The notes under the pieces: generated by a model
The model's input: the letters and a program-made list of their open reading frames with translations, nothing else
Databases searched by the model: none
Told to the model about the DNA's origin: nothing
Made by a program: the position numbers and the translations under genes
NCBI GenBank assembly: GCA_025560025.1
Contig: CP048487.1
Location: 186,001 to 250,000, forward strand
DNA from: Agrobacterium tumefaciens
GTDB lineage: Bacteria; Pseudomonadota; Alphaproteobacteria; Rhizobiales; Rhizobiaceae
Length of the DNA: 64,000 nucleotides
Reading direction: 5' to 3'
Shown here: one piece after another, positions 21,899 through 37,985 of the stretch
How the letters are laid out: each line of letters starts with the position of its first letter
Numbering within the stretch: position 1 is the stretch's first letter

Positions 21899-22228
21899 AT
21901 GACAAGCAAGACGACGAACAAATTCTCCCCTGAAGTCCGCGCCCGTGCCGTGCGTATGGTGACGGAGCATGAAGCCGAACATCCCTCCCGCTGGGCAGCG
22001 GTATCATCGATAGCGTCCAAGATCGGTTGCTCGGCGCATACCCTCCATGAATGGGTGAAGAAGGCCGAGGTCGACAGCGGCAAGCGGGCTGGCCTGCCGA
22101 GCGACGTGGCCGAGAAGATGAAGGCACTGGAGCGGGAGAACCGGGAGCTTCGTCAGGCGAACGAGATTTTGCGCAAAGCCTCGGCATATTTTGCCCAGGC
22201 GGAGCTCGACCGCCCACTGAAGCGATGA
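21899..22228 (+). CDS. IS3 transposase OrfA
   Basis: The 109-residue protein has a helix-turn-helix ([20 protein letters not shown], then [18 protein letters not shown]) and a C-terminal leucine-zipper-like helix ([34 protein letters not shown]), the layout of IS3 OrfA DNA-binding subunits. In intact elements a -1 frameshift near its end fuses it to OrfB. It is complete here but its partner is truncated. Confidence 0.85.
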
Positions 22229-22700
22229 TTTCCTTCATCGACGAACACCGCACGGTGCTCGGGGTCGAGCCGATCTGCAGGCTGCTGCCGATTGCCCCGT
22301 CCACCTACTATGAGGTCGTTGCCAAGCGCACGGACGTGGACCGCCTGTCGGCCCGCGCCCGTCGCGACATGGCGATGAAGGTCGAGATACGCCGGGTGTT
22401 CAACGAGAACTTCCAGGTCTATGGCGTGCGGAAGGTCTGGCGACAGTTGCAGCGAGAGGGTCACGACATCGCCCGCTGCACCGTCGCTCGGCTCATGAGA
22501 ATGATGGGTCTTCAAGGCATCATTCGCGGCAAGCCCGTCAAAACCACCGTGTCGGACAAGGCCGCTCCATGCCCGCTCGACCGCGTGAACCGGCAGTTCC
22601 GTGCTCCCGCACCGAACATGCTGTGGCTCTCCGATTTCACCTATGTCGCGACCTGGCAGGGCTTCGTCTACGTGGCCTTCGTGATCGATGCTTTCGCCCG
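22225..22700 (+). pseudogene. IS3 transposase OrfB, 3' truncated
   Basis: Reading from [21 protein letters not shown] at 22225, the frame has the HTH_21-like region (VFNENFQVYGVRKVWRQLQREG) and the start of the rve integrase core: first Asp in LWLSDFTYVATWQG and second Asp in VAFVIDAFARR. After DAFARR the sequence switches to the LuxR-type gene, so the catalytic Glu and about 90 residues are lost. The transposase cannot be active. Confidence 0.8.
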
Positions 22701-25282
22701 GCGCCCCGCCCGGCTTCGGCAAGACCGCCTTGATGAAAGCGGCCTATGAGCGTCTTGTGGACGGCACCCTCACTTTGCCGGGCATGCGCGACACGGCAGT
22801 TTCCCATTGTTCCTGGTTCAACGCATCCGACCTTGCATCGCCCGAACGTTTCGTCGGTGAACTGCGTCAGTCGCTAGGTCTTGCCGTTATGGCGGACACA
22901 CAGAATGCCATGACGGACGCCATGGAAGCTGTGGCGCGGCGTGAGGGTCTGACCATTCTTTTCATCGACAATGTCAACGAAATCGATACCGGCAGCCGAT
23001 ACCGGTTTCTGGAACAACTCATCCTTTCCGCGCCCGATACGCTTCGCATCGCCTGCTCGTCCTGTTCTCCTGCGCAATTGCAGCTTTCCCGGCTGAAGGC
23101 TCGCGGAGTATTGACGGAGTTGGCGGCGAGGGAACTCGAATTCGGGCGATCCGACCTGCGGCGGCTGCTGGCCCGAGGCGCTATGTCGGCGCTTGTCGAT
23201 CCCCTGATGGAAATTACCCGTGGCTGGCCCGCGCTGGCGCAACTCGCCACCGGCATCGTGACCGGAGGCCCGACGGAAGAAGAACGCCGCCTGTTGCTCG
23301 CCGGGACCCATGCCGATCTGATGGACTACACGCGCGAAACCGTCATCAACCGGCTTTCTCCGGCGCTCCTGTCCACCCTGCGCCGATTGTCGCCTTTCTC
23401 GGAATTTCGTCTTGATCTCGCCTCCGACCTCGGTTTGCCCGGCTTGACGGAAGACGATCTGGTCATGCTGGAGGCCTTGCATCCCATTATAGAAAACGGG
23501 CCGAATGGCTGGCTCTCCCTGCACCCCGTGCTTCGCACCTGCCTCGAACGGGACACCGCCTTCGTTTCGGAAACGGAAAAGAAGGCGCTGCATCGCCAGG
23601 CCGCCATCTGGTTTGCAACCCGCGCTCATCTGGAACGCGCCGTTTCCCACGCCGCCCAGAGCGGCGATTTCCATATGGCGGAAGAAATCATCGGAAAAGC
23701 TGGCGGCGTCGATATTTTTCTGCGGGCCGGGCATCAGGTGCTGGAGCACCTCATCGATAATTTTCCGCCGGAAATCCTGCATGCATCGCCTGGCCTCATG
23801 GTCTGTTATGCCGTGGTGCTCTCCAAGCGCGGCAATGCGGCAGCCGGGCGCGAGCGGCTCGATATTCTGAAAGAAAACGGCAAATGGTCCGCTGCCGCAA
23901 TTGCCGCCGTCGACCGTAGCGTCCTCGACCATATCGACAGCCTGATCGATGTTTATGAAGACCGCCGCATGAGCGCTACCGAGGCGCAACGGCTGGAACG
24001 GGCCGCCGCCGCCCTGCCGCCGCATGCCACGTGGGAACTGGCGTGGCTCTTTAACCACCTCTGTATTATTTACACCCGGACCGGCGAGCTTGAGGAGGCG
24101 CGGCGCGCGGCGCTGAAAGCGCTCGGATATTATCGCGAGGAGAAAACGCCCTATGCCCAGGTCTTCATGCTCATCCATCTCGGCCTCGTCAGTACGCTGA
24201 CCGGTGAATTTTCCGCCGCCCTGCAATTCTGCCGGGAGGCGGAGGAACTGGTGGAACGGGTGCACTGGACAGACAGGAATCTGCTGGCCATCGTTCGCCT
24301 TGCAACAGCCGACGTGCTTTATCAGCAGGGTGAGGTGCTTCAAGTCGAGCAGACCCTGACCGAATGCGTGGAGCCGCTGATCCGGGGGGAAGGCTGGGTG
24401 GACCTGTTCATGCGGCTGTTCTGGCTTCTGGCCCGCAGTCGCCTGCAGGTGAGCGGCTTCGATGCCGCGGCTGCCGCAATCGACAAGGCGGAGGAAGTGG
24501 CAGTGGAGCGTAACCTGCCCCGCCTGAAGACCGCGGCTGCGATCATGCGTGTCGATCTGCTCGTCAGGGCCGGCATGATTGAATCTGCAACGCAAGCGGT
24601 GGAACGGGTAGAAACCCTGAAGCAGGCGGGCGGCCCCGACAACTGGACCTGGCGGGAAGTCTATGATTACGACGTCGCCGCCGCCCGGCTGGCGCTTGCA
24701 CAGGGACAGGCGCCGCAGGCGCTACAAATACTCGAAGCCCTGATCTTTTCGGCCAAGACCGCAGGCCGCGCTTATCACCGCATGTTGGCCGAAGTCATGG
24801 CGGTGCAGGCGTCCTGGAAGGCCGGCCGACAACATCAGTCCCTTGCCTATCTGCAATCAGCCATCGCCCTTGCCCGCGCTCACGAAGCGACGCAACTCTT
24901 TACGGATGAAGGGCATGATTTTGCCACCACGTTGCGCGCTATCGTGCGCCGTTTCGGGCTGAAGGTCTTTAGCCCCAACGCCGTGGAATTCATGAGCCGC
25001 ATTGTTGGACATGGCTTCGGTCGCAAGCCTCACATGATAGTTTCCGCACAACAGAAGCATGACGGCGTAGTACCAGCGTCCGGGTTGCTGAGCAGTCGCG
25101 AACTCACAGTCCTCAAGCTTCTTTCCGAAGGCCGCAGCAATAAGGAAATCGCCCGCGAGCTAGGGCTTTCGGAGGCCACGGTCAAGTTCCACCTGAAAAA
25201 TATTTATGCCAAGCTCGGCGTCAGCCGACGTGGCATGGCCGTTTCCGTCAGCAAGCACCTTAAGCTGACTGAGCCTGAATAA
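22688..25282 (+). pseudogene. LuxR-family MalT/LAL-type regulator, 5' truncated
   Basis: From about 22700 the frame begins inside the P-loop (APPGFGKTAL) of a large ATP-dependent regulator: NTPase region with FIDNVNEID, a long TPR-like helical central part (about residues 290-770) and a C-terminal LuxR helix-turn-helix (LLSSRELTVLKLLSEG, then NKEIARELGLSEATVKFHLKNIYAKLG). The normal N-terminus (about 40 residues) and promoter were removed when the IS3 remnant was joined. The ATG at 22688 lies in IS sequence and has no ribosome site, so the long open frame (864 codons) is probably not expressed normally. Confidence 0.75.
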
Positions 25283-26430: not shown

Positions 26431-28749
26431 TCAGCGCCACTGCTTTTCCTCCAACGTCCAGTTCGATCCCGGTAGTTTTCCAGTTTTGGAGAAGGTCGTG
26501 AGGATATTTCCGAGCAGCTTGGAGATATTGTTGTCGAAATTATTGTAAGGAAGTGACTGACTGAAGGCGATCGAGCCGGTGGAGAACACCGCGCCGTTCT
26601 CCGGCGTGGTAAAATAGACCAAGTCAGCGCGTATTCTGTAATCATAGGACCCCATCAGCCCAGGATAGGGGTATAGGACCTCCTCGACCACGGTCTGATA
26701 GTTGTCGCTATGCCCACCGGAAGAGGCGACAATCAGGGCATGCGGCGGGGTTCCAAGCGTGAGGTCGTACCGGTCGATTTCGAGACCGGCCGCGCCATGA
26801 TGCGCCAGACCGAAATCACCGAGGATTTCACCTTCTATCCCTTCGAACATCCATTCGGCGCGGCGGTGCCAGCTATCCGGCATGCGTCGGTAGGGCCGCG
26901 CGGAATCGAAGCCTTCGGAGATGAAGCCGACACCGAGCAGTTTCTGCGGCGGGCGGCCGAGATCTTTCCAGATGCCGCTTTTCTGTCCCGAGGTGGCTAG
27001 ATAATATTCGCCCGGCCTTGCTTGCCAGGCGCGCATGCCCGAGTTGAGCTTGCGCACTTCGACACACCAGGGTTCGTCCTGTCGGTAGGAAACGTTCCAG
27101 TAGTAGCCGTTACCCCCGAGATAGATCAGACGTCCACCGGCGGCCGCATAGTCTTCCGTTGCGTCCATCAGCTCTTCGGAAACATATTCCGGATGGGTTC
27201 CCGTCAGGACAACCGTATAGGGTTTCAAAGCTGCGATGCCCTCGCGCTGGACGTCCTCGTCGGTGATCACCTCATAGTCGTAGTCCATGTGGTCAAGCCA
27301 GGCGATAACGGAAAGGTCGGCCGGGAATTGCCAGGTGACACCCATCGACGACATACGCGCCTTCGGCCGCATGTTGAGGATCGGCCTGAGATAGGACGAG
27401 TAGCACACCCCTGCCCCATCGGAATGATGGTCGTAAAGCGACAGGCCGAATTCCTTCGTCTGGTACAATTCGATGTCGATCTCGGAAATGATCGGCGACT
27501 GGCCGGCCAGCGGCTGCATGATTTCGGCGTCGAAGGTCAGATGCTCGTTGGCATAGGCGAGATAGCTGCTGGTCGGAATGAGGAAGCAGATTGGCGCCTT
27601 CGGCGTCTTGGCGCGCACGAAGAAGGGGATGTATTCCTCGCGCAGGCCCTTGCCGTCGCCGACGCGCAGGCGAAAGGCATAGGCGCCTGAGCGAACATCC
27701 GGCACGGTAAAGGATGCGGTCTTTTCCCAGCGGCAATCGATGATCGCATCGTCGTGGAATTCAACGCCGCCATATTCGCCGGGCGCAAGCCGATAGCAAT
27801 CGTTGCGGCCCGCCCAGTTGAAGCCGGTCTGCCCGCGAACCGGCCGGTTATAACCTTCGGCATGCAGCGCGTAAGGTCCCGTATCGATCACGCGGTCGCC
27901 GATACCCTTGTCCGTATAACCGATTGACGTATCCCAGGCGGCGAGACATCCATTGGATGGCGGTTTGCCTGACGTGCGGAACGCATCCAGTTCCTCGCGC
28001 GACAGAACCCGGTCGAAGACTGCCGGACGATCCAGCTTGCCATTATAACACTGGGTCTTGAAGGTTCCGCGCAGACTGTGCCAGTCTTGCGCCGCAGCCA
28101 GAAGAAACGGAACTTCGGGCGGATTGAGCGGCTTGAAGCGCAGCGTTTCTCGCACATGGGAGCGGAAATCGATACCGGCGACCTTTCCGACCAGGCTGTT
28201 GTAGCGTGTGCTGGCACTCTCCTGATAGAGCGTCGCATTGCCGGTGGACGCATCGTAGGTCGCGGCAACGAAGTACCACTGGCTTTTCATCAACGGCACC
28301 TCGGCATCGACATAGTCGACCTCGCGGCCGTCGCCATAACCGAATTCCAGGAGACCGGCCGGATTGATCCAGAGCCCGTAGCCACGGTTGTTGTAGGCGT
28401 CCCAGCGTCCCATCAGGCATTGACGTTCGCCCCCGCCCGGCTTGTTGGGGTAGATAAAGGCTGCAAGTGTGAAGCTGCCCTTCGGCGCCAGACGCCCCTC
28501 CGGATCATCGACCGTCAGGAAGGAGCCGACCTGCGTGAACTGCTTGCGTACGGTCCAGCTGCCATTCTGCGGGTTTGCGATCTCCTCTTCCTTATAGCCG
28601 GGACCGGCCGGATGGATGTCGCCATGGATCAGGCGAACGAGTTGCGCCTCGACGCTCGTCGTTCCATCCGCATGCACGAAAAAGCCGATTTCATCGCCCG
28701 GCCGTACCGAGATCCTGTCTGCGTAACCAAAGATTTTCTGTTCGGCCAT
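26431..28749 (-). CDS. N,N-dimethylformamidase large (beta) subunit-like amidohydrolase
   Basis: The start MAEQKIFGYADRIS at 28749 has GGAG upstream. The 772-residue protein has a beta N-terminal domain, a LamG-like domain (about residues 85-255, FTLAAFIYPNKPGGGERQCLMGRWDAY) and a C-terminal amidohydrolase/glutamine-amidotransferase-like domain. Known dimethylformamidase uses a mononuclear iron held by two Tyr and one Glu, recalled as Tyr399, Tyr440 and Glu521 with His519 and Glu657 nearby. Here Tyr399, His519, Glu521 and Glu657 occur at identical numbers and Tyr439 one off (SYLAYANE, SLYDHHSDG, THPEYVS, LEIDRYD). It is the last gene of the ABC transporter operon, 52 bases behind the permease fusion. 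Confidence 0.85.
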   Translation of the reverse strand: MAEQKIFGYADRISVRPGDEIGFFVHADGTTSVEAQLVRLIHGDIHPAGPGYKEEEIANPQNGSWTVRKQFTQVGSFLTVDDPEGRLAPKGSFTLAAFIYPNKPGGGERQCLMGRWDAYNNRGYGLWINPAGLLEFGYGDGREVDYVDAEVPLMKSQWYFVAATYDASTGNATLYQESASTRYNSLVGKVAGIDFRSHVRETLRFKPLNPPEVPFLLAAAQDWHSLRGTFKTQCYNGKLDRPAVFDRVLSREELDAFRTSGKPPSNGCLAAWDTSIGYTDKGIGDRVIDTGPYALHAEGYNRPVRGQTGFNWAGRNDCYRLAPGEYGGVEFHDDAIIDCRWEKTASFTVPDVRSGAYAFRLRVGDGKGLREEYIPFFVRAKTPKAPICFLIPTSSYLAYANEHLTFDAEIMQPLAGQSPIISEIDIELYQTKEFGLSLYDHHSDGAGVCYSSYLRPILNMRPKARMSSMGVTWQFPADLSVIAWLDHMDYDYEVITDEDVQREGIAALKPYTVVLTGTHPEYVSEELMDATEDYAAAGGRLIYLGGNGYYWNVSYRQDEPWCVEVRKLNSGMRAWQARPGEYYLATSGQKSGIWKDLGRPPQKLLGVGFISEGFDSARPYRRMPDSWHRRAEWMFEGIEGEILGDFGLAHHGAAGLEIDRYDLTLGTPPHALIVASSGGHSDNYQTVVEEVLYPYPGLMGSYDYRIRADLVYFTTPENGAVFSTGSIAFSQSLPYNNFDNNISKLLGNILTTFSKTGKLPGSNWTLEEKQWR

Positions 28750-28801: not shown

Positions 28802-30457
28802 TCAGGTTTCGAGCAGGTCCTGCACACGGCGCAGGAAAAGCGCGTGATAGGCCTCGTCCGGCGTCGCGTATGTCTGGTCCTCGACGAGGCGCGGAGCCGT
28901 GCCGCGATGGCCGGCCAGCGCCACGATACGGTAGGCCTTGAATTCCTCGATCACCATGATCGCGTATTTGTCGATCTGCCCCTGCCTGCGGAAATAGTTG
29001 AGCAGCCGCTCCAGCGCTTCCGAGTGCTGGCCGAGCGGACGCGTGCGGTGTTCCTCGATCACGGCGTCGGAGATCAGGCGCTTCAGAAAATCACGCTGCA
29101 TCTTGTCGAACCGGCGGAAATAGATCTGGTCCTTATCGTGGATTTCGGTGGCTTCCTCGGGGAGCATTTCTCCGCCTTTCTCCGCGCGCGTCGCGCGGCG
29201 TTCACTGCGTTTCTTGGCGCGCCAAGTACGGAACTGGTCCTTCATCCCGAACAGCCCGCCGCGCAGGAACAGGACCACCATCAGCATGATGGCGCCGATC
29301 AGCATGAAGCGCAGCGGCCCAAGATCGATCAGCACCCGGTCGATAAAAACGACGATGATCGTTCCGACGACTGCGCCTTCCGAGCGGCCGATGCCACCAA
29401 TCACCAGCATGGCGAGCGAGAGCAGCAAGGTGTCGAACGAGAAGAGATTGGGCGAGGCACCGCCGAAATGGATGGCGTAGAATCCGCCGATGAAGCCGAG
29501 TGCCGCAGACGAGATCAGGAACACCCAGACGCGGGCGCGCAGATAATCGACGCCAACGGCCTGCGCGAAGGCCTCCTTCTTTTCCGGCGCCATCCGCAAC
29601 ACCCGGCCGAGCCGCTTGCCGTTGACAAAACGATAGACGAACAAGGCCGCGAGCAGGAGCGCCAGACAGGCATAGTAGCCGAGAAGCAGCTGACCTTCCT
29701 GTCCCAGACCGATAGGCAGGTAGCTGGGGGCACCATAGAGGCCGCCCGTCGCCGAACCTAGTTGGCGCGACTGCACGACATAGACGCGGCAGAGTTCGAC
29801 GACACCAAGGGTCAGCAGCGCATAATAGAAGCCATCCAGCCGCATGGCGGGAAAGGCGATGACGGCACCGAAGGCAAGGCCGATCGCGGTCCCCATCAGT
29901 GGCAACGTCCAGAAGGGCAGCCCCAGTTGTATCGCAGCATAGGCCGAGCCGTACGCCGCCGCGCCGACCACGGAATAAGTGGCGAGCGAAAAGATGCCGG
30001 CAGTTCCGATGACCAGCATCCAGCAGAGGTTGATCGCGCCGTAGATACCCATCACGGACATGGCCGTCATGACCGTGTTCCACGAGCCTGCCGGCACCAG
30101 GAAAGGCATCATAAGAAACAGCACGAAGGCCATCGACCACCAGATCGGCCGCTTGTCCAGAATGGTTTTCTCGCGGCGCATGGTCTTGGCGTTGTAGCCG
30201 CCGGAAATGTTGAGCATGCGCCGGCGCGTCGGCCAGTAACGGGTGCGGTGCCAGAGGCGCTCGCCATGGCCCGGCCATTTGTAGAAGAAATTGAAGCGAC
30301 CGACCTTGTGCATCTCCGGCTTGAAAGAGGTCGTCTCGTTCCAGGTCGACTGGTGGGACTGCCAGGAGTTGGTTTCGACCTGACGTGTTTCCTTCTCTGG
30401 GTCGAAACAGCCAAGCGGATCGATCCAGACAGGTGGCTGTGTGCTGTTCGCGTTCAT
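28802..30457 (-). CDS. LivM-type ABC permease with C-terminal amidase small-subunit-like domain
   Basis: The 551-residue protein has three parts: a hydrophilic N-terminal extension (residues 1-103); a branched-chain amino acid type permease (about 104-405) with several membrane segments, including IWWSMAFVLFLMMPFLV and FMLIGAIMLMVVLFLRGG; and a cytoplasmic tail (about 438-551). The tail reads HDKDQIYFRRFDKMQRDFLKRLI, LLNYFRRQGQIDKYAIMVIEEFKAYRIVAL and YATPDEAYHALFLRRVQDLL. This resembles the small (alpha) subunit of N,N-dimethylformamidase as I remember it. Normal LivM proteins are 300-420 residues and lack this. Its partner subunit is encoded directly downstream. LivH ends three bases upstream. 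Confidence 0.8.
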   Translation of the reverse strand: MNANSTQPPVWIDPLGCFDPEKETRQVETNSWQSHQSTWNETTSFKPEMHKVGRFNFFYKWPGHGERLWHRTRYWPTRRRMLNISGGYNAKTMRREKTILDKRPIWWSMAFVLFLMMPFLVPAGSWNTVMTAMSVMGIYGAINLCWMLVIGTAGIFSLATYSVVGAAAYGSAYAAIQLGLPFWTLPLMGTAIGLAFGAVIAFPAMRLDGFYYALLTLGVVELCRVYVVQSRQLGSATGGLYGAPSYLPIGLGQEGQLLLGYYACLALLLAALFVYRFVNGKRLGRVLRMAPEKKEAFAQAVGVDYLRARVWVFLISSAALGFIGGFYAIHFGGASPNLFSFDTLLLSLAMLVIGGIGRSEGAVVGTIIVVFIDRVLIDLGPLRFMLIGAIMLMVVLFLRGGLFGMKDQFRTWRAKKRSERRATRAEKGGEMLPEEATEIHDKDQIYFRRFDKMQRDFLKRLISDAVIEEHRTRPLGQHSEALERLLNYFRRQGQIDKYAIMVIEEFKAYRIVALAGHRGTAPRLVEDQTYATPDEAYHALFLRRVQDLLET

Positions 30458-30460
30458 GGC

Positions 30461-31345
30461 TCAGGCCTCCCTTGCTTTGTCGAGGATCCCGGCGATGCCG
30501 CGCGGCCTGAACAGAAGAATGACGATGATCAGCAGGAACTGGGTGATCAGGACATATTGCCCGCCGAGCAGCGATGACGTCAGAGCCTCGTTGAACCCGA
30601 GCAGAACTGCGCCAATCACAGCGCCGGGCACACTGCCCAACCCGCCGACGAGGGCAATGCTCAGACCTTTCACCATCGGGGTGATGCCGCTGAACGGTGC
30701 CACGTAATAGGTTTGCGCCAACAGCACGGCGGCGAGGCCGGCGAGCGCCCCCGTCAATGCCATGACCGAAATCGCAGTGCGGCGCACGCCGATGCCGACG
30801 ATGGCGGCGGCATGCGGATTCATCATCATGGCGCGGATTTCCAGCCCGCGTCGGCTGGAGCGCATCCACATCAGTATCAGGGACAGAAGAACAATCGCGG
30901 ACAAGGATGCGCCGATCTTGTCGGCGGTCAGAACCACGCCGAAGAGATCGACCTTCCCGCGTCCGAACAGTTGTGGCAGCGATTTGGCCCGCGGACCAAA
31001 CATCCAGAGCAGGACCTGATTGCCGGCAAGACTGATCGCAAGGGTCGCAATCAGGGCGCGGATCGGAAAATTCGGTTTGTCATGGACGGGAATGAACGCA
31101 ACCAGGCAGACGAACACGCCGCCGACTGCGCCTGTGAGGATACCGGCTGCCATGACCAGAGGCGGGAACGGCGCAAGATAGACGCTTGCGAGCCACGCCC
31201 CATAGCCCGAAAGCGCGAAGATGAAACCGTAGGCCATATTGACGAGGCCGAGGCTCGACCAGGTCAGCGATATGCCGATGGCGATTGTGCCGTAGATGCA
31301 GGCGAGGGTCAGAGCGTTGGAAACGATGAAACCGAGATCCATCAA
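30461..31345 (-). CDS. LivH-type ABC transporter permease
   Basis: A complete 294-residue integral membrane protein of the branched-chain amino acid/amide permease family, with about eight hydrophobic segments and the family signatures GISLTWSSLGLVNMAYGFIFALSGYGAW near the N-terminus and VKGLSIALVGGLGSVPGAVIGAVLLGF late in the chain. It would pair with the LivM-type fusion as the membrane channel. Its start overlaps the end of the LivF gene by four bases (ATGA), indicating translational coupling. The rare substrate class (amides or amino-acid-like compounds) is inferred from the amidase gene in the operon. Confidence 0.9.
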   Translation of the reverse strand: MMDLGFIVSNALTLACIYGTIAIGISLTWSSLGLVNMAYGFIFALSGYGAWLASVYLAPFPPLVMAAGILTGAVGGVFVCLVAFIPVHDKPNFPIRALIATLAISLAGNQVLLWMFGPRAKSLPQLFGRGKVDLFGVVLTADKIGASLSAIVLLSLILMWMRSSRRGLEIRAMMMNPHAAAIVGIGVRRTAISVMALTGALAGLAAVLLAQTYYVAPFSGITPMVKGLSIALVGGLGSVPGAVIGAVLLGFNEALTSSLLGGQYVLITQFLLIIVILLFRPRGIAGILDKAREA

Positions 31346-32091
31346 TGCGCTCCATGTCGGGTGAGACTCTTCATGATCGATGCCTCGCCTTTGAGTTTGC
31401 CGGCATGCATGCCGATGATCCGATCGACCTTGCCCTCCAGCAGTGCGACGTTCTGCTCTGCGATCACCATGGCGCTGTCGCCAAGTTCGACTGCCATCAG
31501 CGCCTCGATCACCGACTTGCCAATCTTCGGGGCCAAGCCCAGCGACGGCTCGTCGACCAGAAAGAGCATCGCATCCGCCATCAGGCCACGACCGATCGAA
31601 ACCATGCGCCGCTCGCCACCCGACAGCCGCCCGACCGGCGTCGCCATCAGCTTCTCCAGCGGCGGGAAGATCTGGAGGATGCCCTGCTTTCGCGTCTTGC
31701 GCTCCGACCAGGCGCGCGGCGTGAATGCGCCGCTGTCGAGATGTTCCTCGACAGTCAGCCCGTGGAAAATCTCGTCACCCTGCGGGATCAGCGCCAGCCC
31801 ACGCCGCACGATATGGTGCGTGTAGCGTCCCGGCCCCTGGCTTCGGGTTCGGCCGACCTCATGCCCGTCCAGAAGAATAGAGCCGCGCTGCCAGCCAGTC
31901 AGTCCGGCGATTGCCTGGAAAAGGGTCGATTTGCCATGACCGTTCAGGCCGACGAGACCAACGCGTTCTCCTGCATAGACCTTCAGATCGAGGTCGTGGA
32001 TAACACGCATCGGCCCCCATCCGGCCGAAAGCCCGCCAACATTCAGAATTTCACGATGAGCACTGTGTGGCGCTGCGATTGTCGACGTCAT
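31342..32091 (-). CDS. LivF-type ABC transporter ATPase
   Basis: The 249-residue ATPase has Walker A GLNGHGKST, the signature LSGGERRMVSIGRGLM, Walker B AMLFLVDEPSLGLAP and the switch His region replaced by AEQN (VIAEQNVALLEG), as usual for LivF proteins. With LivG it powers the LivH/LivM transporter at the cytoplasmic face. It overlaps both neighbours by four bases. A short N-terminal tail before ILNVGGLSAGWG is slightly longer than usual. The protein appears complete. Confidence 0.9.
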   Translation of the reverse strand: MTSTIAAPHSAHREILNVGGLSAGWGPMRVIHDLDLKVYAGERVGLVGLNGHGKSTLFQAIAGLTGWQRGSILLDGHEVGRTRSQGPGRYTHHIVRRGLALIPQGDEIFHGLTVEEHLDSGAFTPRAWSERKTRKQGILQIFPPLEKLMATPVGRLSGGERRMVSIGRGLMADAMLFLVDEPSLGLAPKIGKSVIEALMAVELGDSAMVIAEQNVALLEGKVDRIIGMHAGKLKGEASIMKSLTRHGAH

Positions 32092-32837
32092 GCTGCGGCC
32101 TCATCTCTGACAGTCTCGAAATAGGCCTCGTTAACCCTGGGATCGGCGAGCACCTCTGCCAGCGAGCCCTGCGAGATCACGTCGCCTGCATCCATCACCA
32201 TCACGCGGTCGGCGATGGTTTCCAGAAGCTCAATCCGATGCTCGACGATGATGATGGCGATGCCCAGTTCCTTGGCCAGAACCCGCATGATCTCGTCCAG
32301 CTCGTCGATCTCGGAATTGATCAGACCCGCCGCTGGCTCGTCCATCAGCAGCAGCTTTGGTCTTCGCATCAGCAGGCATGCCATCAGCAGTTTACGCCGG
32401 TTGAGCGTGTCGAGGCGTTCGGCGATCGTGTTTCCGGGCTCATGGAAGCCAACCAGCTCGGCTCCCCACTCGGCATCGTCGGGCGTCAGATACGGCTCGA
32501 AGGCCTGTCGGGCCGCTTTGAACACTTCGGCGACCGTCAGTTCCTCTGGAACGACGGGCGTCTGGAACGTCCGTCCCAGCCCTAGCCTTGCGCGCTTCTG
32601 CAACGGCAGGGATGTGACATCCTTGCCATCGAAGATCACTCGCCCTGATTTTGGCTGCATGCGTCCTGAGAGGACCTCGAACAGGCTGGTCTTTCCGGCG
32701 CCGTTCGGGCCGATGATCCCGAGAACTTCAGCGGGATTGACATGGAGGGAGACGCCGTTGAGGATCTGGCGTCCCCCGAGTTCGAGTGTGATGTTCTCGC
32801 AGGCGAAAAGGGTGCCCTTGGGGGTGTTCAAGGCCAT
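32088..32837 (-). CDS. LivG-type ABC transporter ATPase
   Basis: The 249-residue ATPase has Walker A GPNGAGKT, Walker B PKLLLMDEPAAGL and the H-loop IIIVEHRIELL. The region before Walker B reads LNRRKLLMACLLMRRP, where the canonical LSGGQ-like signature is changed to LNRRK, an unusual but LivG-compatible variant (many LivG have LSYGQQR; here the Gly is absent). ATG 32837 lies 16 bases after the binding-protein stop with a G-rich site upstream; GTG 32843 is an alternative. The frame stays open well upstream but that part overlaps the binding-protein gene. Confidence 0.87.
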   Translation of the reverse strand: MALNTPKGTLFACENITLELGGRQILNGVSLHVNPAEVLGIIGPNGAGKTSLFEVLSGRMQPKSGRVIFDGKDVTSLPLQKRARLGLGRTFQTPVVPEELTVAEVFKAARQAFEPYLTPDDAEWGAELVGFHEPGNTIAERLDTLNRRKLLMACLLMRRPKLLLMDEPAAGLINSEIDELDEIMRVLAKELGIAIIIVEHRIELLETIADRVMVMDAGDVISQGSLAEVLADPRVNEAYFETVRDEAAA

Positions 32838-32853
32838 GCTCACCACCCCCTGA

Positions 32854-34140
32854 TCACCACCATGGCGCGGCACGCAGTTCGGTTTCCTGCAGCGCGTCGG
32901 GATAGATGATCTTGTGCTCGCCGTCCTGCACCTGGAAGAACAGCTGGGCCATACCCTTTTCGAGATCCGTCGCGGTGACATCGTAGCCGTTGTCAGGGTA
33001 GTGGGCGCATTCCTGGAAGGCATTGCCCATGCTCGTGTAGCCGCAGACGCCACGATAGGGATTGGTGCGGATCCAGTCGGCGACCGCCTCGAATTTTGAG
33101 GGATCGCCGACCGCTTCCCAGGCCGCCTTGAGGTAGTAGGTCGTGTCGTAACCATTGCCGGTGTAGCAAAGACCCATGATGCCGGGAAACCGCTTCTGGT
33201 ACTTCTCTCGGAACGCCTTGCCCTTCTCGTCGGCATATACGCCGAGCACAGTGCTCCAGACGAAGCCTTCTGCCGCGGGACCGGACAGTTCGAGAAATTC
33301 AGGCTGGGAAGGTCCGTACTGGAGATAGACGAGTGTGCCTTCCAGCGGATCGGCCTGATACTGCTTGACGAAGGCTGCATATTCGGCGGCGACCCAGTGG
33401 TCGATCATCACGGCGCCAGCGCCGATCTTCTTGATGTCCTGGATGACCGGTCCCCAGTCCTGCACAGGGTACTGGATATCGGTGATGCCCGCGAGCTCGA
33501 ACTTACTCTTCGGCAGCGCCTCCTGCAGGCATTTCGAGATAGTCTGATTGTAGGCGATCTGCTCCTGGACAATGTGAACGCCATTGTTCTTGGGTTTCCA
33601 GACACCCTTGTCCTGCATGGTCTGCAGGAACATCGGGAATGTGTACCCGTAATGGACCTCGGACGGGTCCGTCTGAAAGATGTGGCGGTATTTTTCCGGG
33701 TTCTTGACCAGCGCATCGGTCATGGCGCGTTGCGTCAGGCCCCACAGCAATGGTGCCTTATAGCTGGCGGAAGCATCGGCCAGCGGGATCGGGGTGAAGG
33801 TGAACGCCGTGGATATGGCATGCACCTTGGCATCGACGAGGCTGTTGATTGCGACACGCCCGCTTTCGGGCGACAGGACATCGAAATCAACAATGACGGG
33901 CTTGATCTCGCGGCCGAGAACGCCGCCAGCTGCGTTGATCTCCTCAAGTGCAAGGGTCGTACCGTTCAAGTAATCCTGATGGTCGGCGACACCGGCCATC
34001 GCAGTCTGCGAGATGGGCAAGCCCAGCAAGATTGGATCCGACGCAAAACTGCGGCGCACGAAGGGTGATGGAAAGGTCGAGGCGGCAACGCCGGCCGACA
34101 GCGTTTTCAGGACGGTGCGGCGCGAAATATCCTTCAGCAT
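32854..34140 (-). CDS. ABC transporter substrate-binding protein, Tat leader
   Basis: The 428-residue precursor starts at 34140 (MLKDISRRTVLKTLSAGVAASTFPSPFV), a twin-arginine leader. The mature part is a periplasmic binding protein type 1 of the Leu/Ile/Val/amide (FmdD/UrtA) group: LLGLPISQTAMAGVADHQDYLNGTTLALEEINAAGGVLGREI, then SRALTFTP-like and YTGNGYDTTYYLKAAWEAVGDP. As first gene of the operon it defines the imported substrate, probably an amide or amino-acid-like compound hydrolysed later by the encoded amidase. Open sequence upstream to 34281 is rejected because the leader starts at 34140. Confidence 0.9.
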   Translation of the reverse strand: MLKDISRRTVLKTLSAGVAASTFPSPFVRRSFASDPILLGLPISQTAMAGVADHQDYLNGTTLALEEINAAGGVLGREIKPVIVDFDVLSPESGRVAINSLVDAKVHAISTAFTFTPIPLADASASYKAPLLWGLTQRAMTDALVKNPEKYRHIFQTDPSEVHYGYTFPMFLQTMQDKGVWKPKNNGVHIVQEQIAYNQTISKCLQEALPKSKFELAGITDIQYPVQDWGPVIQDIKKIGAGAVMIDHWVAAEYAAFVKQYQADPLEGTLVYLQYGPSQPEFLELSGPAAEGFVWSTVLGVYADEKGKAFREKYQKRFPGIMGLCYTGNGYDTTYYLKAAWEAVGDPSKFEAVADWIRTNPYRGVCGYTSMGNAFQECAHYPDNGYDVTATDLEKGMAQLFFQVQDGEHKIIYPDALQETELRAAPWW

Positions 34141-34375
34141 GATGATAGTCCCCCGATTTTTTGCCGCTGACCCACCTTGGAGCCCGCGCTGCATTTTTGC
34201 AGTGGAGGGAACGTTATCGCGGCAACGCGGCTGCGTATTGTCTGAGACAGACCGCACTTTGTCCCGAGAGTGAACGATCAAGGCTCATGTCGGATGACTT
34301 TGGGAAGCGGCATGTTCCTTGCGTGTAAATTGAGACATACTGCGACTGTTCATGGTTTCAGGCGAGGTGCCTATC
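34141..34375. promoter_or_regulatory. Divergent promoter region, transporter operon and AraC gene
   Basis: A 235-base gap separates the leftward transporter/amidase operon from the rightward AraC gene. A small dyad TGTCT-G-AGACA lies at 34239-34249, and a related TTTGTCCC occurs shortly after. These are plausible but unproven binding sites for the AraC protein. No coding sequence is seen. Confidence 0.45.
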
Positions 34376-35323
34376 ATGCCAATTGTCCACCACTACAACA
34401 CTGAACAACTTCAGCGCGCAAATAAGCTCAGCGCCTGGCAGGAATACATGTCGTCCGTGTATTATGACTTGGATATTGTCCCATTGTCGGCAGACAAAGT
34501 CCGGGGCGAACTTTATGAAGTGCAATTTCCATCGATTGGTCTGTCGCAATTTAAAGCAGATGCTCAAAAAGTGGTTCGGCACAAGTCGGCGGCACAGCGT
34601 GATAAGTCAGAGAACTTCGTGTTCCTTTTCCCCACACGTCAGCGAATGGCGTTCGAGCAAAACGGACGAGCAGGCGTCGTGCTGCCTGGAAGCGTTTTCC
34701 TTCTGAATTCTGCCGAAGCGTACAGGATCGATGTGCCTGACCAATCCGAAAACGTGACCCTCAAGATCTCCTGTGCTGCCTTGCGATCACGCGTGAACAA
34801 GATCGACGATATCTGCGGCACCAAAAACTTTGCCAACCCGTTCCTTGTGCCCGTAGTCGCGCAAATGGGCGCACAGTTGCTGAAGTTCGACGGCGGCGGC
34901 GACAGCATGAAGCTGGAACAAACGCTGACCGATCTCATCTGTCTGATGATAGAGACGCGTTCCGAGGACGATCTGATGATGAGAGATCGTCAATCGTTGG
35001 TCTCGGTCATGTACGATCGGCTCATGTCCTACACCCGCGCCCATTTTCGCGATCCGGGCCTCAGTCCAAACACCGTTGCGGGAGCACATCGAATATCGGC
35101 CGGATATCTACATCGCGTCTTCCATCGGCATGGCACGAAATTCGGCGAAGTGCTGATGGAAACGAGACTGATGGCGGCCTGCCAGATGCTGCAAAATGCG
35201 AAGGCCTCAAACCAGCCTATAAACTTTGGCGAGATTGGGTACAGCTGTGGCTTTGTCAGCCAGGCGCATTTCTCATCTCGGTTCAGGGAACGCTTCGGTG
35301 TGAGTCCCCGGAACTTTGAATAG
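34376..35323 (+). CDS. AraC-family regulator of the amide operon
   Basis: The start MPIVHHYNTEQ at 34376 has GAGG upstream. The 315-residue protein has an AraC-binding-like N-terminal half (VRGELYEVQFPSIGLSQFKADAQKVVRHK, then NFVFLFPTRQRMAFEQNGR) of the type found in nitrilase/amide regulators, and a C-terminal double helix-turn-helix (DPGLSPNTVAGAHRISAGYLHRVFHRHGTKFGEVL, then EIGYSCGFVSQAHFSSRFRERFGVSPRNF). It is divergent from the substrate-binding-protein gene and is the obvious activator of the transport/amidase operon. The inducer is unknown. Confidence 0.88.
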   Translation: MPIVHHYNTEQLQRANKLSAWQEYMSSVYYDLDIVPLSADKVRGELYEVQFPSIGLSQFKADAQKVVRHKSAAQRDKSENFVFLFPTRQRMAFEQNGRAGVVLPGSVFLLNSAEAYRIDVPDQSENVTLKISCAALRSRVNKIDDICGTKNFANPFLVPVVAQMGAQLLKFDGGGDSMKLEQTLTDLICLMIETRSEDDLMMRDRQSLVSVMYDRLMSYTRAHFRDPGLSPNTVAGAHRISAGYLHRVFHRHGTKFGEVLMETRLMAACQMLQNAKASNQPINFGEIGYSCGFVSQAHFSSRFRERFGVSPRNFE

Positions 35324-35481
35324 CAGGCACTTGGCCAATACGGACAGCATTTGCTTCAATCGGATCTCGATTTCATACGACATGACTATCCAATTAGGTT
35401 GCCTTGAGATCCCATCAGGGGTGAGTAGCGGCCTGCACCATGGCAGAGTGAGGTCGCTTGAAAACTCTCTGGAGGCCAATC

Positions 35482-36647
35482 ATGCCGATAACAGCAGATC
35501 AAACTCAATCGCAGATCACTACTCCCGTCGATCTTGGCGCAATATTCGTCTCGTTGGAATTGAGTAAATCGACCTGGCTGGTGACAACTCTGTCCCCTGG
35601 CAGCGAGAAGATGTCTCGCCACTCCGTTACTGGAGGGGATATTGTCGGCTTGTTCGCATGCTTTGCAGCGCTTCGTCAGAAAGCCACTCGGCGAAAGAAC
35701 ATAGTTTACCCACTGGTGGTGATCCAGGAGGCCGGGCTGGATGGCTTCTGGCTGGGACGAGTGCTCAGCAAGGAGGCTTGGATCGAGAGCCACATTGTAG
35801 AAGCCGCATCAATTGCCATGCCGCGCCGGCATCGCCGGGCGAAGACCGACCGTATCGACGGCGAAACGCTGATCCGCGCATTGATGGCATGGAAACGTGG
35901 CGAACCTCGCGCGTGCTCAATGGTCAAACTTCTCTCACCCGAGGAAGACGACAATCGACGGATTGGACGGGAGCGGAAAACTCTGATTGCGGAACGTGTC
36001 TTCCACGTCAACCGCATAAAGGGGCTGCTGTTCACGCAAGGAATTCGGGATTACCAACCTGTCAATCGAGATCGCCGCCAACGCCTGGAAGAACTTCGGA
36101 CTGGCGATGGTCGGCCACTCTCAAAGCATTTGAAAGGGGAAATCTGCAGAGAACTCGATCGCCTCGAATTGTTGCTCACACAAATCAAGGCTGTTGAAGC
36201 CGAGCGAGATGCCTTGATTGTTCAGGAGACGCCGGAAACGCCGAAAGAGGCGGCCGCGCTTTTAGGCATTAAAGGAATAGGCCCAGAGTTCGCTACGATA
36301 CTTTACACGGAAGGCTTGTTCCGACACTTCGACAATCGGCGGCAAATCGCATCCTATGCGGGCCTTGCGCCCTCCCCTTGGCAAAGCGGCAACGTCAATC
36401 GTGAACAAGGGGTCTCGAAAGCGGGAAATCCGCGTTTACGAGCACTATGGTAGAGCTCGCTTGGCTATGGTTGCGGCATCAACCGAAATCGACGCTGACA
36501 CTATGGTTCAAAGAGCGCATCGCTCGGAACGCCGGCCGTCTAAAGACGCCGATGATCGTGGCGCTTGCGCGCAAGCTCCTTGTCGCTCTGTGGAAGTATG
36601 TGAGCTCCGGCGTCGTGATCGAAGGTGCGATCATGAAAACCGCCTGA
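35482..36647 (+). pseudogene. IS110-family transposase, copy A, frameshifted
   Basis: Start ATG 35482 follows TGGAGG. The N-terminal DEDD recombinase domain (FVSLELSKSTWLVTTLSPG, YPLVVIQEAGLDGFWLGRVL, RRAKTDRIDGETLIRALMAW) and C-terminal IS116-type domain (LLGIKGIGPEFATILYTEGLF, IASYAGLAPSPWQSG) are present. At 36451 a stop interrupts the frame; the remainder (MVELAWLWLRHQPKSTLTLWF, MIVALARKLLVALWKYV) continues in another frame from about 36447 to 36647, so one base is missing near 36445-36447. Unless recoded, the protein lacks its last 65 residues. Confidence 0.8.
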
Positions 36648-36689: not shown

Positions 36690-37985
36690 CTGATCAGTCC
36701 TGACGGATCCAGGTGAACGGACCGGGAATCCTTTTGGCTTTCAATGCCGACCTTGAGTTTGGTCCCGTTCTCCTGAGCCCGTGCCCGTCGAATGCGGGAT
36801 AATGGTGCAGCCGCGTGAGAGCGGCGACCGGATGTGATGAGGTGGAACGGCCCGCTCCGACAGCATCTAGTGCTAAAACGTGGTCGTTGCTCGAACGCCA
36901 CAAAGGAGGGACCGTTCCATGAAGCAAGTTAGCACAATCGGGCTGGATTTAGCCAAACACGTCTTCCAAGTTCACGGCGCCGACAATGAAGGTTCGGCCC
37001 TGTTCAATCGGAAACTGCGGCGCACCGAGGTGCTGCGCTTCTTCGAAAGACTGCCACCGTGCCTGGTTGGCATGGAGGCATGTGGTGGCGCGCACTATTG
37101 GGCGCGGGAGATTGCTCAATTCGGCCATGATGTGCGTCTCATTCCGCCGGCTTACGTCAAACCTTTCGTCAAGCGCGGCAAGACGGACGCGGCCGATGCG
37201 GAAGCCATCAGCGAAGCGGTGATCCGCAAGACCATGCGCTTCGTCCCCATCAAGACCGCCGAGCAGCAAGCGGATGCGATGGTCCTGAAGACCCGTGCTC
37301 TTCTGGTGCAGCAGAGAACGCAATCGGTTAATGCCCTACGAGCACATCTGGCCGAACTGGGCATCATCGCGGCCGGTGGCCTTGCCAACGTAGCGGCACT
37401 GATGACCATCGTTCGGGAAGCTGAAGATACCCGACTACCCACAGCGGCACGATTCGCCCTCACAGCTATTGTCGATCAGATCGACGCCTTGGCCATTCAG
37501 ATCGGCGTGCTCGAGCATACAATCGTTACGGAATCGAAGCGCGATGAGAGCATGCGTCGACTGACAACGATCCCCGGGGTTGGTGCCATAACCGCAGCGA
37601 CGATCAAAGCCTTGGTTCCGGATCCCGGCGGGTTTAAGTCCGGGCGGCACTTCGCCGCTTGGGTGGGACTGACCCCCAGGCCTCATTCCAGCGGAGGCAA
37701 AGAGCGATTGGGTAGAATCTCGAAAATGGGGAATCCCGAACTCCGTGTTCTCCTGGTCCTCGGAGCGACAGCCGTTCTGCGGATTGCCCGGAACAATGAA
37801 AAAGACACGACCTTGGTTAAAAGCACTGCTTGCCAGACGTCCATTCAAGGTGGCCGCTGTCGCGTTGGCCAACAAAATGGCTCGCATCATCTGGGCCCTC
37901 TTGAATAAGGGCGGATTTTACGATCCTCCGGAACCATCCCCAAATTTAGCGACAATCTGAAGAGTATCAGGACTTACAACTGATC
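36690..37985 (+). mobile_element. Nested IS110/IS1111-type element
   Basis: This second, different IS110-family element lies within copy A of the first. It comprises about 230 bases of left non-coding sequence, a transposase gene with a strong AAAGGAGGG ribosome site and a short right end. CTGATCAG-like sequence occurs near both borders (about 36691 and 37980). Exact ends cannot be fixed by eye. Confidence 0.55.
36919..37960 (+). pseudogene. IS110/IS1111-type transposase, frameshifted near the end
   Basis: From ATG 36919 the protein shows the RuvC-like start TIGLDLAKHVFQVHG with the first catalytic Asp, GMEACGGAHYWARE, KTDAADAEAISEAV and the C-terminal IS116 motif TIPGVGAITAATIKALV, GRHFAAWVGLTPRPHSSGG and LGRISKMGNPELRVLLVLGA. 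A run of five A at 37799-37803 appears to carry one extra A: the true ending (TRPWLKALLARRPFKVAAVALANKMARIIWALL) lies in the adjacent frame to 37960. The last 50 residues are therefore lost in the primary frame. Confidence 0.8.

What the first reader, a model, noticed from the sequence alone, without database searches (positions are those of the whole stretch)
28802..30457. ABC permease fused to an amidase small-subunit-like domain
The LivM-type permease has a 114-residue cytoplasmic tail (about 438-551) with NYFRRQGQIDKYAIMVIEEFKAYRI and ATPDEAYHALFLRRVQDL, resembling the small subunit of N,N-dimethylformamidase. No free small-subunit gene is present, while the large-subunit homologue lies directly downstream with its iron-site residues kept. 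If right, the amidase would be anchored on its own transporter, coupling uptake to hydrolysis. Seen: the extra tail and the gene order. Known: DMFase is an alpha/beta enzyme. Inferred: the tail replaces the alpha subunit.
Basis: partly seen in the sequence, partly recalled or inferred. Interest (0 to 1): 0.88.

Follow-up and report, generated by a model that had tools for sequence, protein, structure and literature searches.

The report
Transporter gene hiding an enzyme subunit
A bacterial uptake pump carries, as its tail, the small subunit of the enzyme that probably digests what the pump imports, and the same gene appears to contain a second, hidden start that also makes this subunit on its own.

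Summary
The LivM-type permease (28802-30457, minus) ends in a DMFase small-subunit (alpha) domain: sequence E=2e-12 to 6lvb_B, model TM 0.85/0.83. The large subunit (beta) starts 52 bases downstream, iron-site residues kept. The fusion is common: 78 of the 80 best related loci.
That the tail simply replaces alpha is incomplete. Met431, at the alpha border, follows AGAAAGG by 7 nt, a ribosome-binding-like site. Among 82 fused loci, those without a separate downstream alpha gene keep start codon plus AAAGG/GGAGG in 60 of 61, those with one in 2 of 21. Without a separate gene, Lys/Gly codons follow the ribosome site rather than codon usage and mRNA there is less structured, though not in the window itself. 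So free alpha seems always supplied, by nested start or own gene.
In 7 of 7 two-beta relatives one beta lost catalytic residues.
Best model: one tethered alpha docks the amidase on its importer; the second alpha is free. Product, complex and substrate are untested, and the separate-gene state arose only about twice on the tree.

The parts
28802..30457 (-). LivM-type permease fused to a DMFase small-subunit (alpha) domain, 551 aa
30152..30457 (-). N-terminal extension of the permease (residues 1-102), strongly conserved, role unknown
   Evidence: invariant columns in a 54-sequence alignment; model confidence below 50 over residues 49-89 and 91-99
29273..30064 (-). permease core, Pfam BPD_transp_2 (residues 132-395)
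28805..29146 (-). alpha-like tail, residues 438-551
   Evidence: E=2e-12 to 6lvb_B; TM 0.85/0.83 for the model
29168..29182 (-). junction codons for E-K-G-G-E (GAG AAA GGC GGA GAA)
29175..29181 (-). AGAAAGG, Shine-Dalgarno-like, 7-nt spacer to the internal ATG
   Evidence: best SD match of the in-frame starts scored in this gene (7, next best 4)
28802..29167 (-). proposed nested in-frame gene for free alpha (Met431 to stop, 121 aa)
26431..28749 (-). DMFase-type large subunit (beta), 772 aa, iron-site residues kept
30461..31345 (-). second permease (LivH type)
31342..32091 (-). ABC ATPase (LivF type by position)
32088..32837 (-). ABC ATPase (LivG type by position)
32854..34281 (-). substrate-binding protein (Peripla_BP_6), with a weak twin-arginine signal match
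34352..35323 (+). AraC-family regulator, divergently transcribed

Best explanation
One gene makes two proteins. Full-length translation gives a LivM-type permease with the DMFase-like alpha subunit as its cytoplasmic tail. Ribosomes that start at Met431 give the same alpha subunit free. Both alphas join beta, so a DMFase-type iron amidase is docked on the inner face of the importer that brings in its substrate. My preferred stoichiometry is asymmetric: a LivHM importer has one LivM (recalled), DMFase is alpha2-beta2, so one alpha of each enzyme is tethered and the other is free. Shown here by computation: the fusion, its predicted fold, the gene order, the conserved ribosome-like site plus start codon, and its complementarity with separate alpha genes. 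Inferred: that the internal start is used, that the tail binds beta, the stoichiometry, and that the substrate is a small N-alkyl amide.
For: Sequence and predicted fold. Beta is adjacent with intact iron site. In published parDMFase the large subunit alone was inactive, most small-subunit contacts are with domain III, which holds the active site, and the cavity to the active site lies between the two subunits (PMC7686228, parts 1-2 of 3 read). Nested start: start codon plus AAAGG or GGAGG in 60 of 61 loci without a separate downstream alpha gene and in 2 of 21 with one; one locus per 75%-identity cluster: 21 of 22 against 0 of 9. Codons: in GC>0.5 loci without a separate gene the Lys codon is AAA in 43 of 49 (8.9 expected from each locus's own usage) and a GGA is present in 42 of 52 (7.6 expected); with a separate gene 2 of 20 (3.8) and 1 of 20 (3.9). 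The junction is the single best in-frame start by SD match in 54 of 61, against 2 of 21. Junction mRNA is weaker than the gene average (-11.4 against -17.5 kcal/mol), the reverse with a separate gene (-21.1 against -17.1). In the 7 loci without a separate alpha gene whose first junction codon is no start codon, the next codon is ATG, GTG or TTG. In five genomes the fused copy is the only alpha match (G000, G001, G616, G561, G421; in all but G000 only 11 or 15 of the candidate stretches were scored). Asymmetry: in 7 of 7 two-beta loci exactly one beta lost an iron ligand (in three also the essential His), against 0 of the other 89 beta rows.
Against: No product was measured. The window's own junction is not less structured than the rest of the gene (-18.4 against -17.3). 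The peptide K-G-G is itself SD-like, so per-locus energy tests against synonymous codons are mostly not significant, the window's included (p 0.67, 0.44). On the permease tree the separate-alpha state needs only two changes, so only two independent comparisons exist; over 200 pairings 1.9 of 2 go the predicted way and none the other, which cannot reach significance. Exceptions: L109 has a start but no AAAGG/GGAGG; L084 and L090 have AAAGG and TTG yet also a separate alpha; L058 has a weak SD match; 8 of 21 loci with a separate alpha still have a start codon. Four of the 61 (L067, L088, L113, L160) show under 3.3 kb downstream, so a second alpha after beta could be missed there. SAR11 junction codons fit ordinary AT-rich usage and are uninformative. 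No complex of tail and beta could be modelled.
Confidence: 0.62

Rival explanations
1. Two pools: the fused alpha makes a membrane-bound amidase and the free alpha makes a separate soluble alpha2-beta2 amidase, with no mixed complex.
For: Both alpha forms are predicted; parDMFase was purified as alpha2-beta2 or a dimer of it (PMC7686228).
Against: In two-beta loci one beta lacks catalytic residues: the one next to the fused alpha in L076/L078/L155, the second one in L077/L079/L104/L105. In separate pools one pool would be useless. Among 120 listed relatives of these betas, all 47 that lack a catalytic residue keep Tyr at position 693, where parDMFase's partner subunit reaches into the active site, while 12 of the 73 intact ones have His there.
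Confidence: 0.2
2. One reading: the fused tail is the only alpha; the internal ribosome-like site is a by-product of the conserved E-K-G-G-E peptide.
For: The peptide is conserved even where the start codon is gone; per-locus energy tests are weak; the window's junction is not open.
Against: Codon choice follows the ribosome site only where no separate downstream alpha gene was found; complementarity with separate alpha genes; weak mRNA structure at the junction across those loci.
Confidence: 0.08
3. The tail no longer joins the enzyme: free alpha alone completes beta and the fused copy is structural or regulatory for the permease.
For: This permease family carries another conserved extra part, its N-terminal extension; binding of the tail to beta is untested.
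Against: The tail keeps residues invariant in 47 alpha-like sequences (L52, R54, L56, Y58, F59, R60, K67 counted from Met431), and beta follows it in the loci where beta is visible, directly or after a separate alpha (in L058 after another ORF).
Confidence: 0.07
4. The SD-like codons slow the ribosome at the membrane-domain/tail border to help folding, without initiation.
For: SD-like codons after the last membrane helix are at a plausible pause position (inference).
Against: A pause needs no start codon, yet a start codon is kept in 61 of 61 loci without a separate alpha gene and in 8 of 21 with one.
Confidence: 0.03

Closest known systems
N,N-dimethylformamidase of Paracoccus (parDMFase, PDB 6lvb and relatives; PMC7686228)
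   Same: Alpha sequence and predicted fold, beta over nearly full length, iron-site residues; an alpha next to a beta.
   Different: Alpha is fused to an ABC permease, the substrate is unknown, and alpha is apparently made in two forms. The paper parts read describe no importer in the enzyme.
Cas11 made by internal in-frame translation of cas8/cas10 (PMC11899642: abstract, section 4.1 and passages seen)
   Same: A small subunit comes from an internal start in the gene of a larger partner in some subtypes and from a separate gene in others.
   Different: Here the larger product is a membrane transporter and the small subunit belongs to a metabolic enzyme; no product has been shown.
LIV/HAAT-type ABC importers (LivFGHM, UrtABCDE)
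   Same: Binding protein, two ATPases and two BPD_transp_2 permeases in one operon.
   Different: Conserved N-terminal extension and an enzyme-subunit tail on the LivM-type permease; far below the NCBIfam cut-offs for LivM and UrtC.
Transport metabolons (carbonic anhydrase with transporters; search listing and abstract starts only)
   Same: Idea of an enzyme held at a transporter.
   Different: As far as I recall those are non-covalent pairings; here one enzyme subunit is covalently part of the permease.
N-acetyl-(R)-beta-phenylalanine acylase (PDB 8huy)
   Same: Beta-like chain, E=3.3e-118 to the window's beta.
   Different: More distant than DMFase beta (399 against 598 bits); whether it uses an alpha subunit was not examined.

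Membership tests
DMFase small subunit (alpha) | sequence and fold of 6lvb_B | tested here: met
   E=2e-12; model TM 0.85/0.83, rmsd 1.2
DMFase small subunit (alpha) | gene next to beta | tested here: met
   52 bases to the beta start; same order in relatives
DMFase small subunit (alpha) | independent polypeptide | tested here: inconclusive
   fused in the ORF; nested start predicted
DMFase small subunit (alpha) | binds beta | not testable with these tools
   no complex prediction available
DMFase large subunit (beta) | full-length similarity and Tyr/Tyr/Glu iron site with catalytic His | tested here: met
   E=1.7e-178 over residues 5-760; Y399, Y439, H519, E521, N547
DMFase | hydrolysis of DMF | not testable with these tools
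   no assay; residue 693 is Tyr, not Phe
LIV/HAAT ABC importer | binding protein, two ATPases, two BPD_transp_2 permeases in one operon | tested here: met
Small subunit made by an internal in-frame start (Cas11-like mode) | conserved in-frame start codon with ribosome-binding site at the domain border | tested here: met
   60 of 61 loci without a separate alpha gene; codon test
Small subunit made by an internal in-frame start (Cas11-like mode) | separate gene where the internal start is missing | tested here: met
   19 of 21 loci with a separate alpha gene lack start plus SD, 1 of 61 without one does; only two changes on the tree
Small subunit made by an internal in-frame start (Cas11-like mode) | short product demonstrated | not testable with these tools
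   needs protein or ribosome data

The most novel reading that the evidence does not exclude
A half-tethered enzyme: each importer carries one asymmetric DMFase-type alpha2-beta2 amidase, one alpha being the permease tail and the other made free from a start hidden in the same permease gene. In some relatives the two halves became separate genes (fused alpha, free alpha, active beta, dead beta), the dead beta keeping the residue that reaches into its partner's active site.
Probability: 0.45. Interest if true: 0.9.

Novelty: new variant of a known kind. Interest (0 to 1): 0.8.

Why it matters
Importers usually release their cargo into the cytoplasm for separate enzymes (general knowledge). Here a subunit that the characterised enzyme needs for activity (PMC7686228) is part of the permease itself, in bacteria from Bradyrhizobium, Methylobacterium and Burkholderiales to marine SAR11. 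If right, it gives a genetically clean case of physical coupling between ABC import and catalysis, a metabolic example of two subunits from one gene, and a natural series (nested start, separate alpha, separate alpha plus dead beta) for testing how asymmetric enzymes evolve. It also shows how a nested gene can escape annotation. In 12 of 80 loci a neighbour looks like part of the methylamine-assimilating N-methylglutamate pathway, which would point to N-methylated amides as a nutrient.

Tried and rejected
Chance resemblance of the tail to DMFase alpha: rejected. A separate small-subunit gene in this genome: none found. Pfam family PF26354 could not be searched (not in the held library). A simple anti-SD energy test per locus was tried first (in 35 the loci were sorted into alphaproteobacteria and others by me from record titles) and was weak, because K-G-G is SD-like whatever the codons; codon counts, start-codon counts, rank among in-frame starts and mRNA structure followed. 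These tests and their thresholds were chosen after the junctions had been seen, so they are not blind. Independent-pairs sign test: only two pairs. Whole-protein model: mean pLDDT 75, not used for fold claims. A LivG-type ATPase fused to a dead beta (P0268) was not used as evidence, since it may be an assembly chimera.

Literature: 13 papers of the held open-access library contain the word dimethylformamidase. Of these I read parts 1-2 of 3 of PMC7686228 and passages of PMC10308929 and PMC4543880; PMC11801797 showed no occurrence in its main text; of the other nine I saw only the listing. The one paper with both DMFase and permease is PMC4543880, whose passages describe no fusion. One search (dmfA1/dmfA2) gave 6 papers, listing only apart from PMC4543880. 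One search is uninformative: none of its ten listed papers holds the word. Searches were seen as listings apart from PMC11899642. Subscription papers and preprints are not held.

Caps and dropped rows: one search kept the best 80 of 133 relatives; one search lists the best 120 of 1009 hits, 120 of 124, 120 of 1048, and searches scored only the roughly 8000 candidates sharing most words.

Full report
Observation. The minus-strand ORF at 28802-30457 encodes 551 residues. Residues 132-395 are a BPD_transp_2 permease. Residues 438-551 match the small subunit of N,N-dimethylformamidase, PDB 6lvb_B, at E=2e-12, the next of six PDB hits being at E=0.014. With the whole protein as query, 6lvb_B is the only PDB hit at E<=0.01. 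AlphaFold of the 121-residue form from Met431, with 47 aligned sequences, gave pLDDT 87.5; Foldseek against the PDB gave 6lvb_B at E=2.3e-8, TM 0.85/0.83, rmsd 1.2 over 115 columns, then two other DMFase small-subunit chains, and nothing else below E=1. The gene at 26431-28749 matches 6lvb_A at residues 5-760, E=1.7e-178; Y399, Y439 (Y440 in parDMFase), H519, E521 and N547 are kept. It starts 52 bases after the fused gene's stop. The genome has no other alpha-like match at E<=10. It has a second, distant beta (43% identity over residues 300-756) with no alpha in the 18 kb examined.

How common the fusion is. The best 120 of 1009 scored homologues of the fused protein all carry both PF26354 and PF02653 in precomputed Pfam; proteins of the tail's length carry PF26354 alone, so PF26354 is the alpha domain. 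A scan of one genome per species found 133 relatives and kept the best 80 loci; 78 of 80 have the alpha domain in one frame with the permease. L075 has a frame break before the junction and L112 begins near a contig end. The order binding protein, LivG, LivF, LivH, LivM-alpha, beta is conserved on one strand in the loci long enough to show it, in records titled Alpha-, Beta- and Gammaproteobacteria, SAR11 included. In an even draw of the window's class, 37 of 385 genomes have an alpha match and 2 of these have it fused to the permease; in its order, 40 of 297 have one and 15 have it fused (matches: where only 11 or 15 candidates per genome were scored; fusion, and for other long frames; matches in frames under 300 aa were taken as unfused). 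Every free-alpha locus fetched also has a beta in the short stretch held. In two unfused relatives, L164 and L165, a distant LivG/F/H set lies upstream and a permease-like reading frame ends close to or overlapping the alpha reading frame, a plausible picture of how fusion could arise by loss of a stop (inference).

The nested start. The alpha domain begins at a strongly conserved junction, EKGGE-M-LPEEATE. In the window the DNA is GAG AAA GGC GGA GAA ATG, i.e. AGAAAGG, 7 nt, ATG. AGAAAGGAGG is the complement of the 16S rRNA 3' end of alphaproteobacteria (recalled, not from a call). In many relatives the junction reads GAGAAAGGAGGCGAG-ATG or close to it. I split 82 loci into those with no second alpha match within 6.5 kb downstream (61) and those with one (21). 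A start codon at the first or second junction position occurs in 61 of 61 and in 8 of 21; start codon plus AAAGG or GGAGG in 60 of 61 and in 2 of 21. The exceptions are L109 on one side, L084 and L090 on the other. With one locus per 75%-identity cluster the counts are 21 of 22 and 0 of 9. Of the 21 loci with a separate alpha gene, 12 read AAG GGC GGC; 15 have Ala or Leu in place of Met, one has Val and five keep Met. Where Met is replaced in loci without a separate gene, the next codon is GTG, ATG or TTG (L073, L074, L099, L102, L108-L110, L113, L157, L159, L160).

Controls. In loci with GC above 0.5 the junction Lys codon is AAA in 43 of 49 without a separate gene against 8.9 expected from their own codon usage, and in 2 of 20 with one against 3.8; at least one GGA among the two Gly codons occurs in 42 of 52 (7.6 expected) and 1 of 20 (3.9 expected). 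Clustered: AAA 17 of 19 (4.2 expected) and 2 of 9 (2.3); GGA 19 of 22 (4.5) and 0 of 9 (2.0). Of the in-frame start codons scored in each fused gene the junction has the single best SD match in 54 of 61 loci (5 ties, 2 below) and in 2 of 21 (6 ties, 13 below). A 60-nt window at the junction folds at -11.4 kcal/mol on average against -17.5 elsewhere in the gene without a separate alpha, and at -21.1 against -17.1 with one; clustered -12.6 against -17.9 and -20.0 against -16.9.

Results against. The window's own junction folds at -18.4 against -17.3, so it is not open, although its SD match is the best in its gene (7 against 4). Per-locus duplex energies against synonymous resampling are mostly not significant, the window's being p 0.67 and 0.44. 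SAR11 junctions are as expected from AT-rich codons. Four of the 61 loci show under 3.3 kb downstream (L067, L088, L113, L160). Alpha genes elsewhere in the genome were looked for only in the genomes. On a tree of the permease part the separate-alpha state needs two changes: a group of 14 loci, and a group of 7 (Bradyrhizobium, Rhodopseudomonas, G613). Only two independent pairs can be drawn; over 200 pairings 1.9 go the predicted way and none the other, which cannot be significant. Ten end branches of that tree are flagged long, the fragment L105 most. The tests were designed after the pattern had been seen.

Two-beta loci. In seven loci the order is fused alpha, beta, free alpha, beta (L076-L079, L104, L105, L155). 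In each, exactly one beta lacks catalytic residues: Y399F and H519R in the first beta of L076, L078, L155; Y439C in the second beta of L077, L079, L104, L105. None of the other 89 beta rows, which include some copies, lacks Y399, Y439, H519 or E521. In parDMFase Y440A, E521A and H519A were inactive, and F693 of the neighbouring large subunit forms part of the pocket (PMC7686228). Position 693 is Tyr in all seven dead copies and His in six of seven active partners. A profile search listing 120 of 1048 relatives gave 47 that lack at least one of the four residues, all with Tyr693, and 73 intact, 12 of them with His693. The 14 betas form one clade on the tree, so this is one duplication, though the inactivating changes differ. 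The simplest reading is an obligate beta/beta' heterodimer. It favours a mixed complex in which the two alphas need not be the same polypeptide.

Mechanism proposed. The tail lies in the cytoplasm if the usual rules hold: positively charged flanks and about ten predicted membrane helices (my count on the model and the sequence). Beta starts without an evident signal peptide (by eye). A LivHM importer has one LivM (recalled), while DMFase is alpha2-beta2 (PMC7686228). One tethered and one free alpha per beta dimer would satisfy both. [quoted passage not shown] A natural alpha-beta fusion, L144, supports alpha and beta as partners.

Likely substrate. In 12 of 80 loci (eight SAR11 loci, L064, L069, L077, L079) a neighbour belongs to a group whose representative has a Glu_synthase domain; in 9 there is also one like a GXGXG-domain protein, in 8 a glutamine-amidotransferase-like one, and in 7 one like a type III glutamate-ammonia ligase. 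Only four representatives, from L082, L083 and L093, were identified by families: the ligase scores 613 bits to TIGR03105 (cut-off 469.6), E=1.9e-169 to PDB 7cql and E=2.4e-99 to 9qur, named glutamate-methylamine ligase. NCBIfam gave no equivalog above cut-off for the other three; naming the set as N-methylglutamate-pathway genes is my recall. It points to an N-methyl amide that releases methylamine; parDMFase has its highest catalytic efficiency on N-methylformamide (PMC7686228). I did not search the window's genome for these genes.

Known or new. The domain fusion is visible in databases (PF26354 with PF02653; one UniRef name begins N,N-dimeth). Of the 13 held papers with the word dimethylformamidase and the one with DMFase and permease, none of the text I saw describes it; what was read of each is told under Tried and rejected. 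Making a small subunit from an internal start, or from a separate gene in other subtypes, is known for Cas11 (PMC11899642). I rate the whole as a new variant of a known kind.

Noticed in passing
L076:10442-12745; L078:10452-12758; L077:13192-15510; L079:13235-15553; L104:13127-15439; L105:3494-5806; L155: Large subunits lacking catalytic residues, paired with intact ones in two-beta operons; they keep Tyr693.
   Followed up: yes
L075, L082, L083, L089, L091-L093, L095 (SAR11) and L064, L069, L077, L079: Neighbouring genes resembling parts of the N-methylglutamate pathway (Glu_synthase-domain gene in all 12; a type III glutamate-ammonia ligase-like gene in 7).
   Followed up: partly
window 30152-30457: A roughly 100-residue N-terminal extension of the permease is strongly conserved (W11, W39, K60, H64, R73, R79 invariant in 54 sequences); its role is unknown.
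   Followed up: no
L144:2750-5326: Natural fusion of an alpha-like domain to the N-terminus of a beta-like chain in one frame.
   Followed up: no
protein P0268: LivG-type ATPase fused to a dead beta, 3 members on 2 contigs; possibly an assembly chimera.
   Followed up: no
G000:C2:1680917-1682290 (L161:8093-10294): A second, distant beta in the window's genome with no alpha in the 18 kb examined.
   Followed up: partly
mostly 6-9 kb upstream of the junction in L034-L107, minus strand: The regulators beside the operon differ between groups: an AraC-like gene in 13 loci (label by resemblance to the window's gene); a response regulator (14 loci), a histidine kinase (13) and a binding-protein-like gene (13) in others.
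   Followed up: no
window 21899-22749, 35458-36453, 36880-37908: ORFs that look like IS3- and IS110-type transposases flank the operon (recognised by eye, not searched), so the region may be mobile.
   Followed up: no
L075:1-700: Frame break in the permease gene just before the junction in a SAR11 assembly, near a homopolymer; probably a sequencing error.
   Followed up: no
PMC10308929 (passages): A paper on rhodopsin gene clusters of streamlined aquatic bacteria lists an N,N-dimethylformamidase among the neighbouring metabolic genes; its relation to the SAR11 loci here was not checked.
   Followed up: no
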